Shown piece after piece: positions 61,663 to 63,623 of a stretch of DNA of 64,000 nucleotides; the stretch's first letter is position 1; every line of letters begins with the position of its first letter. The DNA is from an uncultured Opitutia bacterium (lineage in GTDB: Bacteria > Verrucomicrobiota > Verrucomicrobiia > Opitutales > Puniceicoccaceae): positions 1-64,000 of the forward strand of contig CAJXLM010000001.1 in NCBI GenBank assembly GCA_913056175.1, in the 5' to 3' direction. The translations under genes were made by a program, and so were the position numbers. The notes under the pieces were generated by a model. That model did no database searches. It was not told where the DNA came from and saw only the letters and a list, made by a program, of their open reading frames with translations.

Positions 61663-62436
61663 ATGGAGGTCCTCATGGAACGACTCCAGGGCCTCCCCCC
61701 GGAGGTCCTTTGGCTGGGACTGCTCGCCGTCGCTTTCGGGTCCATCCTCGCCCTCCACCGCTGGGCGGGTCGGGCCGGGCTCTACCTCTACATGGCCATC
61801 GCCATCATCGGGGGGAACCTCCAGGTCCTCAAGGTCACCCAGTTCTCCGTCTTCCCGGACCCGGTAGCCCTCGGCACCATCCTCTTCTCGACGACCTTTC
61901 TCTGCACCGACATCCTCGCCGAGTACCACGGGGCGAGGTACGCCCGCAAGGGGGTCCTCCTCGGGTTCACTGGCCTCGTCCTCTTCAACCTCTTTCTCTT
62001 CGCGGCCCTCTCCTTCCGCCCGATCGAGGCGGCCGGGGATCCCTTCACCGAGCGGGCCGCCGCCCTGCAGGGGCACCTCGAGGCGGTCTTCCTCCCCGCC
62101 CCGGCCATCCTCGTGGCCTCCTTGTGTGCCTACCTCGTCAGCCAGTTCAATGACATCTGGATTTTCGGCCGGATCCGCGCGGCCACCCGCGGACGCTTCC
62201 TCTGGCTGCGCAACAACGCCTCCACCTGGATTTCCGCCCTCGTCGACAACACGGTTTTCAGCGTGCTCGCCTTCGTGGTGCTGGCTCCGGAACCGATCGG
62301 CTGGAAGCCGCTCGTCTTCACCTACATCCTCGGGACCTACGGACTGCGGGTGACCGTGGCCCTCCTCGACAGTCCGATCGTCTACCTCGCCCGTCCCCGG
62401 CGGCGGGCGCTGCCGGCGACGGAAATGGCCGGATGA
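61663..62436 (+). CDS. Queuosine precursor transporter (YhhQ/QPTR family)
   Basis: The 257-residue membrane protein has about six hydrophobic helices and the family segments NLQVLKVTQFSVFPDPVALG, FLCTDILAEYHGARYARKG, the YLVSQFNDIWIFGRI segment and RNNASTWISALVDNTVFSVL. YhhQ-type proteins import preQ0/preQ1. It overlaps tgt by four bases (ATGA), so the transporter and the tRNA-modifying enzyme are co-translated. No queC, queD, queE or queF is here, so the cell may rely on imported precursor. Confidence 0.93.
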   Translation: MEVLMERLQGLPPEVLWLGLLAVAFGSILALHRWAGRAGLYLYMAIAIIGGNLQVLKVTQFSVFPDPVALGTILFSTTFLCTDILAEYHGARYARKGVLLGFTGLVLFNLFLFAALSFRPIEAAGDPFTERAAALQGHLEAVFLPAPAILVASLCAYLVSQFNDIWIFGRIRAATRGRFLWLRNNASTWISALVDNTVFSVLAFVVLAPEPIGWKPLVFTYILGTYGLRVTVALLDSPIVYLARPRRRALPATEMAG

Positions 62437-63623
62437 GCGCGGACGACGGGCTTTCCTTTGCCACGACCGCGGAGTGCGGGCGCAGCGGCGCCCGCTGCGG
62501 ACGGCTCCGCACACCCCACGGCACCGTGGAGACCCCGGTCTTCGTCCCCTGCGCCACCCGCGGCGCCCTCAAGGGGATCACCGCCGAACAGGCTGCGGCC
62601 ACGGGGGCCCAGATGCTCCTGGCCAACACCTACCACCTCTTCCTCCAGCCGGGCCCGGAGGCGGTCGCTGCCCGCGGCGGTCTCCACCGCTTCATGAACT
62701 GGCCGCGCCCCCTCCTCACCGACTCGGGAGGCTTCCAGATCTTCAGCTTCGGGCATGGTTCGGTGGCGGATGAGATCAAGGGGCGCCGCAAGCAGCGGCA
62801 GTCCCCGGCCGCCGTCGAGCTCACCGAGGAGGGAGCCGCCTTCCGCTCCTACGTGGATGGCCGCCGGGTCTTCCTCAGCCCGGAGGGCGCCGTCGAGGCC
62901 CAGCAGAGGATCGGGGCGGACCTCATCGTGGTGCTGGACGAGTGCACCCCCTACCACGTCGACCGCGAGTACACCGCCCGGTCCATGGAGCGCAGCCACC
63001 GCTGGGGGTTGCGTGGGCTGGAGCGCTTCCGGGAAACGGACGACGGCCGCCAGGGGCTCTACGGGATCGTCCAGGGCGGGGTCTACGAGGACCTGCGGGC
63101 GGAGAGCAGCGCTTTCGTAGCCGGGCAACCCTTCTTCGGGCAGGCCATCGGGGGTTCCCTCGGCAGCGATCCGGCCCAGATGGAGGAAGTGGTCGCATGG
63201 TCGCGGGCGGGACTGCCTCGGGAACGCCCCACCCATCTCCTCGGCATCGGGGGCATCCGCGACCTCTGGCGCAATGCCGCCCACGGCATCGACAGCTTCG
63301 ACTGCGTCCACCCCACCCGACTCGCCCGCCACGGCGGTGCCCTCTGCGTGCCGGGAGAGAACGGGGGGCAGGAGCACCTCAACCTGCGCAACGCCCGCTT
63401 CCGCGACGATCCCCGCCCCCTCGACGAGCGCGTGCCCCACCCGGCCTCCCGCGAGTACTCCCGCGCCTACCTCCACTACCTGGTGCGGGCGGGCGAGAGT
63501 CTCGGGGGACAATTGCTCGCCCTGCACAACCTCGCCTTTCTCGCCTGGATGATGGAACGGCTCCGCGAGAGTATCCGCGAGGGGCGCTTCCCCGAGGAGG
63601 CCGGGAACTGGACGGGCGCTTGA
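62433..63623 (+). CDS. tgt: Queuine tRNA-ribosyltransferase, zinc cysteines replaced
   Basis: The 396-residue enzyme exchanges guanine 34 of GUN-anticodon tRNAs for preQ1. It keeps TPVFVPCATRGALKGITAEQ, LANTYHLFLQPGPE, LLTDSGGFQIFSFGHG with the catalytic Asp, YGIVQGG, and IDSFDCVHPTR with the nucleophilic Asp near residue 290. Where E. coli has CDCYTC (three zinc cysteines) just before NYSRAYL, this protein reads VPHPAS before REYSRAYL. An insertion near residue 115 (VADEIKGRRKQRQ) separates two conserved segments. The open frame is intact and the transporter gene overlaps it, so it is probably functional. A histidine in the altered loop could partly replace a cysteine. Confidence 0.93.
   Translation: MSADDGLSFATTAECGRSGARCGRLRTPHGTVETPVFVPCATRGALKGITAEQAAATGAQMLLANTYHLFLQPGPEAVAARGGLHRFMNWPRPLLTDSGGFQIFSFGHGSVADEIKGRRKQRQSPAAVELTEEGAAFRSYVDGRRVFLSPEGAVEAQQRIGADLIVVLDECTPYHVDREYTARSMERSHRWGLRGLERFRETDDGRQGLYGIVQGGVYEDLRAESSAFVAGQPFFGQAIGGSLGSDPAQMEEVVAWSRAGLPRERPTHLLGIGGIRDLWRNAAHGIDSFDCVHPTRLARHGGALCVPGENGGQEHLNLRNARFRDDPRPLDERVPHPASREYSRAYLHYLVRAGESLGGQLLALHNLAFLAWMMERLRESIREGRFPEEAGNWTGA

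What the first reader, a model, noticed from the sequence alone, without database searches (positions are those of the whole stretch)
63421..63480. Tgt with all three zinc cysteines substituted
Established: bacterial and eukaryotic Tgt enzymes coordinate a structural zinc through the CxCxxC triad and a later histidine. Seen directly in the DNA: the loop reads RPLDERVPHPASREYSRAYL, so the cysteine positions are Val, His and Ser, while the neighbouring residues, both catalytic aspartates and the later LHN histidine remain. The gene is intact and overlaps the precursor transporter gene. Inference: a zinc-free or rebuilt Tgt fold in this lineage.
Basis: partly seen in the sequence, partly recalled or inferred. 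Interest (0 to 1): 0.72.

Follow-up and report, generated by a model that had tools for sequence, protein, structure and literature searches.

The report
Queuine-inserting tRNA enzyme without zinc site
This bacterium's only tRNA-guanine transglycosylase, which probably puts the imported vitamin-like base queuine into tRNA, has lost the three cysteines that hold the enzyme's textbook structural zinc; the same loss has happened several separate times in bacteria, including in Sinorhizobium, where the gene is known to be needed, so the zinc seems to be dispensable.

Summary
The window's single intact tgt (62433-63623) reads V334, H336, S339 where Z. mobilis, E. coli and human enzymes have the CxCxxC zinc ligands. 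His365 and both catalytic aspartates (D97, D290) remain. It is not a sequencing error: three other genomes of the same family also lack all three cysteines, and a second family of the order keeps only the middle one. It is not a decayed copy: it is the only Tgt in the genome, relatives are under strong purifying selection, and it overlaps a queuosine-precursor transporter gene by 4 bases. The specificity loop (GGSLG) and the absence of QueA, QueC and QueG point to direct queuine salvage. The loss is not confined to this lineage. In sampled Tgts the triad was lost at least about seven times: here, in Micavibrio-type Alphaproteobacteria, in preQ1-type enzymes of the same order and class, and in all 52 Hyphomicrobiales sequences sampled, where the histidine is gone too. 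Sinorhizobium meliloti carries such a Tgt, and published mutants show its tgt is needed. I conclude that this is an active, queuine-inserting Tgt whose zinc subdomain folds without zinc: a recurrent, apparently undescribed variant of a known enzyme. Metal content was not measured.

The parts
62433..63623 (+). tgt, 396 aa, single copy, queuine-type tRNA-guanine transglycosylase without zinc cysteines
   Evidence: Pfam TGT E 4e-115, NCBIfam TIGR00430 over cut-off; only Tgt in genome; AlphaFold model pLDDT 90.9, TM 0.88-0.89 to Z. mobilis Tgt structures
63432..63449 (+). degenerate zinc triad: V334 (63432-63434), H336 (63438-63440), S339 (63447-63449) in place of C-x-C-x-x-C
   Evidence: alignments to Z. 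mobilis, E. coli and S. meliloti and to 290 other Tgts
63525..63527 (+). H365, the retained fourth zinc ligand (LHN)
   Evidence: kept in 45 of 45 queuine-type Tgts that lost the triad
62721..62723 (+). D97, equivalent of Z. mobilis Asp102 (TDSGGFQ)
   Evidence: invariant in a 52-sequence alignment
63300..63302 (+). D290, equivalent of the nucleophile Asp280 (FDCV)
   Evidence: invariant in a 52-sequence alignment
63138..63170 (+). base-specificity loop GQAIGGSLGSD: the bulky Val of preQ1-type enzymes (GG[LV][SA]VGE) is absent and Gly follows
   Evidence: published rule that queuine-type bTGTs have GG[LS][AS]G (PMC11570991)
61663..62436 (+). queuosine precursor transporter (QPTR/YhhQ family), overlaps tgt by ATGA
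   Evidence: NCBIfam TIGR00697 154 bits over cut-off 50.95, Pfam PF02592; next to tgt also in G001, G003, G006, G032, G047 and G012

Best explanation
The gene encodes an active tRNA-guanine(34) transglycosylase of the queuine-type subfamily, whose C-terminal 'zinc' subdomain folds without a metal. The cell imports queuine through the overlapping QPTR transporter, and this Tgt swaps it directly for G34 in tRNAs with GUN anticodons; no QueA/QueG step is needed. Shown: residues, single copy, gene overlap, loss of de novo and late queuosine genes, family-wide loss of the triad, several independent losses, purifying selection, confident model with a normal fold. Inferred: direct queuine use, absence of zinc, and the way the loop is held. 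My proposal for that: small or aliphatic residues at C1 and C2 fill the former metal pocket, and Ser339 starts the short helical turn before the SRAY helix and may hydrogen-bond to the retained His365, so that packing replaces the metal staple.
For: V334/H336/S339 for the triad, with H365, D97 and D290 kept. The same loss in all four genomes of the family; f4 keeps only the middle Cys. Only Tgt in the genome. Strong selection between triad-less relatives: pN 0.08-0.16 against pS 0.69-0.85 in f1 and f4 pairs. QueA: absent in 17 of 17 same-order genomes with this Tgt type, present in 8 of 8 with the other type; a second set from Alphaproteobacteria, 19 of 21 absent. No credible QueC or QueG in G000. 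QPTR next to tgt. V-less specificity loop; Z. mobilis V233G mutants have been solved with queuine bound. Model pLDDT 90.9 overall and 97 over residues 331-340, same secondary structure as a triad-bearing relative modelled the same way. In two independently derived groups every triad-less queuine-type enzyme has Ser at C3 and keeps His (45 of 45). Functional precedent: S. meliloti Tgt reads SSCPAT with His to Asn, and S. meliloti 1021 tgt mutants lose queuosine-dependent phenotypes (PMC3568095).
Against: No metal or activity measurement. For E. coli Tgt zinc is reported as required for activity (PMC9508795 citing Chong 1995). AlphaFold without metals or coordinates cannot show how the loop is held. 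Queuine as substrate is inferred from the loop and from gene absence; the window loop GGSLG does not match the published GG[LS][AS]G pattern letter for letter. The functional precedent is a distant, preQ1-type Tgt from strain 1021, while the sequence read here is from strain Ak57.
Confidence: 0.8

Rival explanations
1. A rebuilt metal site: the protein still binds zinc or another metal through different ligands, for example H336, H365, H315 and a new cysteine C305.
For: H365 is kept; C305 is conserved in all four family members and not in relatives; H315 is conserved in the family.
Against: H336 is Ala or Pro in the other three family members; C305 is Val/Ile in f4, which also lost two cysteines; H315 is common in triad-bearing relatives too. 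No spatial check was possible.
Confidence: 0.08
2. A decaying or non-catalytic Tgt (for example a QTRT2-like scaffold) in an organism that is losing queuosine.
For: The genome has lost QueA, QueC and QueG and the metal site.
Against: Both catalytic aspartates and the specificity pocket are kept, there is no second Tgt, selection is strongly purifying, and tgt overlaps the transporter gene. QTRT2 has lost its catalytic residues but kept the zinc ligands, the opposite pattern (PMC6165067).
Confidence: 0.06
3. Sequencing or assembly artefact.
For: High-GC metagenome-type assembly in 84 contigs.
Against: Three codons would have to be wrong without a frameshift, and three independent same-family genomes share the loss.
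Confidence: 0.01
4. Selection for zinc sparing: the loss is part of a programme of zinc-free protein variants in low-zinc habitats.
For: Ribosomal proteins L31 and L36 in this genome, where read, lack the CxxC zinc motifs.
Against: The same zinc-free L31/L36 types are found in same-order genomes whose Tgt keeps CxCxxC (G012, G015, G028), so the marker does not separate the two states. This is a rival for the cause of the loss, not for how the enzyme works.
Confidence: 0.2

Closest known systems
Queuine-type bacterial Tgt of the direct salvage route (Chlamydia trachomatis bTGT; PMC11570991)
   Same: Specificity loop without the Val of preQ1 enzymes; genome without QueA and QueG; QPTR transporter beside the gene
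   Different: Zinc triad lost. The C. trachomatis sequence was not read here, so its triad is not compared; the nearest triad-bearing members of the clade (L008, L010-L018, L035) keep CxCxxC
Zymomonas mobilis / Escherichia coli Tgt (preQ1-type; PDB 1PUD and many more)
   Same: Fold (TM 0.88-0.89 by query length), catalytic aspartates, SRAY helix, HN motif
   Different: Those have CxCxxC plus His around zinc and GGLAVGE for preQ1; the window has V/H/S and GGSLGSD, plus an insert of about 16 residues at 108-126 of low model confidence
Hyphomicrobiales Tgt (e.g. Sinorhizobium meliloti, L296)
   Same: Zinc site lost although the gene is functional in vivo (S. meliloti tgt mutants, PMC3568095)
   Different: An independent loss in the preQ1-type branch; C1 to Ser and C3 to Ala/Ser/Thr, C2 often kept, and His lost in all 52 sampled (window keeps His)
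Micavibrio-type queuine Tgt (L037, L040, L048 and others)
   Same: Queuine-type, His kept, C3 always Ser, C1/C2 mostly aliphatic
   Different: A separate loss: one clade of all triad-less queuine-type rows is rejected, AU p 0.0003

Membership tests
tRNA-guanine(34) transglycosylase (Tgt, TIGR00430 / PF01702) | Scores above the curated equivalog cut-off over full length | tested here: met
   395.5 bits against 306.75, residues 12-387
tRNA-guanine(34) transglycosylase (Tgt, TIGR00430 / PF01702) | Two catalytic aspartates (Asp102 and Asp280 in Z. mobilis) | tested here: met
   D97 and D290, invariant columns
tRNA-guanine(34) transglycosylase (Tgt, TIGR00430 / PF01702) | Distorted TIM barrel of Tgt | tested here: met
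   AlphaFold model pLDDT 90.9; best matches are Z. mobilis Tgt structures, TM 0.87-0.89, rmsd mostly 1.4-2.0 A
tRNA-guanine(34) transglycosylase (Tgt, TIGR00430 / PF01702) | Structural zinc site CxCxxC plus His (usual, called highly conserved; not a curated membership criterion) | tested here: not met
   V334/H336/S339 with H365. Other Tgts without it are functional by published genetics (S. meliloti), so this does not exclude membership of the family
tRNA-guanine(34) transglycosylase (Tgt, TIGR00430 / PF01702) | Base exchange at G34 of GUN tRNAs | not testable with these tools
   Needs enzyme assay or tRNA mass spectrometry
Queuine-type bTGT (direct queuine salvage) | Substrate loop without the Val that blocks queuine (published GG[LS][AS]G) | tested here: inconclusive
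   GGSLG: Val absent and Gly next, but fourth residue is Leu, not Ala/Ser
Queuine-type bTGT (direct queuine salvage) | Genome lacks QueA and QueG/QueH | tested here: met
   QueA absent; QueG only a 75-residue hit below cut-off; QueC absent. QueH not searched
Queuine-type bTGT (direct queuine salvage) | Queuine importer | tested here: met
   QPTR gene overlapping tgt; that it carries queuine is inferred

The most novel reading that the evidence does not exclude
The Tgt zinc, described as highly conserved and required in E. coli, is generally dispensable: bacterial Tgts have lost it at least about seven times with convergent repacking (C3 to Ser/Ala/Thr, C1 and C2 to aliphatic or small residues), and large groups of bacteria, including the Hyphomicrobiales, run queuosine synthesis on zinc-free Tgts.
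Probability: 0.65. Interest if true: 0.62.

Novelty: new variant of a known kind. Interest (0 to 1): 0.55.

Why it matters
Tgt is a textbook zinc enzyme and a long-studied drug target; its zinc subdomain carries part of the dimer interface. If natural Tgts work without the metal, and have come to do so many times, the zinc is a replaceable staple and not a functional need. That gives a set of natural experiments on how a structural metal site is removed, bears on statements that queuosine formation depends on zinc at the Tgt step, and warns against using CxCxxC as a test for functional Tgt in genomes. Queuine salvage in free-living, larger genomes of this order also widens a route best known from Chlamydia.

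Tried and rejected
Sequencing error: rejected by three same-family genomes. Second complete tgt: none in the genome. One ancestral loss shared with the Micavibrio group: rejected, AU p 0.0003. Separate losses in f1 and f4: not resolved; they group with support 56 only. Rebuilt site: no consistent ligand set. Zinc sparing through ribosomal L31/L36: does not discriminate. dN/dS: synonymous sites saturated, so only pN and pS are quoted. Paper searches for zinc loss in Tgt found nothing, but only open-licence papers are held. A search of solved structures found no entry that was evidently a natural zinc-free Tgt; the organism of 10fa/10fb was not identified.

Full report
CHECK OF THE OBSERVATION. 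The window has an intact 396-codon gene at 62433-63623 (+). It scores far above the curated cut-off for Tgt. In the alignment with Z. mobilis Tgt the stretch DERVPHPASREYSRAY lies on DSECHCAVCQKWSRAY; E. coli Tgt reads DPECDCYTCRNYSRAY in the same columns. The three zinc cysteines are therefore V334, H336 and S339. The fourth ligand H365 and the catalytic aspartates D97 and D290 remain. The 20-residue loop lies at 63414-63473, seven bases upstream of the stated interval. The genome has no other Tgt.

NOT AN ERROR. Three other genomes of the same family (64-65% identical Tgts, L003-L005) read LIAPAS, LPAPAS and LPPSAS at the site; three genomes of a second family of the order (f4; L006, L007, L009) read LPCKAS. 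Ten other same-order Tgts of the same type keep CxCxxC (L008, L010-L018). The loss is thus old, shared by the family, and nested in triad-bearing relatives.

NOT A DECAYED COPY. Between triad-less relatives the share of changed non-synonymous sites is 0.08-0.16 in f1 and f4 pairs, against 0.69-0.85 for synonymous sites (saturated). The gene overlaps a QPTR (YhhQ-type) transporter gene by 4 bases, and QPTR lies next to tgt in G001, G003, G006, G032, G047 and G012 as well.

WHICH TGT IT IS. Tgts in this order fall into two kinds. One has the preQ1-type loop GG[LV][SA]VGE. The window's kind has GG[SC]LG, without the valine. Published work ties loops without the valine to queuine use (GG[LS][AS]G; PMC11570991), and Z. 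mobilis V233G mutants have been solved with queuine. Gene content agrees: QueA is missing in all 17 same-order genomes with the window's kind and present in all 8 with the other kind; 19 of 21 Alphaproteobacteria with the window's kind also lack it. QueC and QueG are missing in the window genome (short sub-threshold hits only). So the likely role is direct salvage: import queuine, put it into tRNA in one step. That step is inferred.

HOW WIDE THE LOSS IS. I read 293 Tgts plus the window. In the queuine-type clade (88 sequences) 45 lack the triad. In the preQ1-type set (206, sampled on purpose near triad-less groups, so not a frequency) 107 lack it. In the sample 52 of 52 Hyphomicrobiales sequences lack C1 and C3 and the histidine, 44 keeping C2 (typical reading SxCPAARDYSRAY...WxNL). 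The Micavibrio order has both states, 19 of 50 intact. The other 57 named loci from many phyla all keep the triad. On a tree of 143 non-redundant Tgts built without the zinc columns at least 7 changes are needed, and rooted on a triad-bearing row there are 9 triad-less clades or rows; some of these may merge, and a few branches are long. Inside the queuine-type clade a single triad-less clade is rejected (AU p 0.0003), so this family and the Micavibrio group lost it separately; f1 and f4 may share one loss.

FUNCTIONAL PRECEDENT. S. meliloti Tgt (strain Ak57, CP090106.1) reads PLDEQSSCPATRDYSRAY with WNN for the histidine: three of four ligands are gone. In S. meliloti 1021 a tgt insertion mutant could not induce cytoskeletal changes on HeLa cells, was not rescued by preQ1 while queC and queF mutants were, and fixed nitrogen poorly (PMC3568095). 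B. henselae Tgt, of the same order, partly complements an E. coli tgt mutant (PMC11570991); its own triad was not read here. This contrasts with the statement that E. coli Tgt needs zinc (PMC9508795).

STRUCTURE AND MECHANISM. AlphaFold gives pLDDT 90.9, with 97 over residues 331-340; a triad-bearing relative (L035) folded the same way gives the same helix boundaries around the site. The model matches Z. mobilis Tgt with TM 0.88-0.89. In all 45 triad-less queuine-type enzymes C3 is Ser and the His is kept; C1 and C2 are mostly Leu, Ile, Val or Met. I propose that aliphatic packing plus a Ser-His contact replaces the metal. In Hyphomicrobiales both partners of that contact are usually gone (C3 mostly Ala), so there the packing must differ.

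ALTERNATIVES. A rebuilt metal site is unlikely: the window's H336 is Ala or Pro in its family, C305 is family-specific but stands alone, H315 is common in triad-bearing relatives. Zinc economy as the cause is open: L31 and L36 of this genome lack zinc motifs, but so do those of triad-bearing relatives.

NOVELTY. No held paper that I found describes loss of the Tgt zinc site; reviews call these residues highly conserved (PMC4425180). The library holds open-licence papers only. I rate it a new variant of a known enzyme, more interesting for its recurrence than for this single case.

Noticed in passing
L114 (G130), L122 (G168), L128 (G133); similar Tgt parts in L199, L208, L232, L247: Some genomes of this order and class carry a second, about 690-aa protein: a Tgt domain with DQC[IV]P and FDCIIP[TS]Q (the Arg of PTR lost) and intact CxCxxC, fused to a C-terminal MnmC-like methyltransferase domain (Pfam Methyltransf_30). 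A Tgt-methyltransferase fusion of unknown role.
   Followed up: partly
L021-L031, L196-L225 (same order, preQ1-type Tgt): Most preQ1-type Tgts of this order also have a broken zinc triad, typically LDNYTC with only the third Cys and the His left (41 of 43 sampled).
   Followed up: partly
L119, L226-L228 (same class): A further group reads GHPxVA-type loops with the HN histidine changed to Gln (QNL).
   Followed up: no
G000 C56:7173-7538 (L309, L320): Ribosomal proteins L31 and L36 lie next to each other and lack the CxxC zinc motifs; the same in same-order relatives where both could be read.
   Followed up: partly
G285 (L039) and G296 (L050): Two Alphaproteobacteria with a queuine-type, triad-bearing Tgt nevertheless have QueA; whether they also have a second, preQ1-type Tgt was not checked.
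   Followed up: no
window 62754-62812 (residues 108-126 of Tgt): Queuine-type Tgts carry an insert of about 16 residues next to the active-site lid, modelled with low confidence here and absent in preQ1-type enzymes.
   Followed up: no
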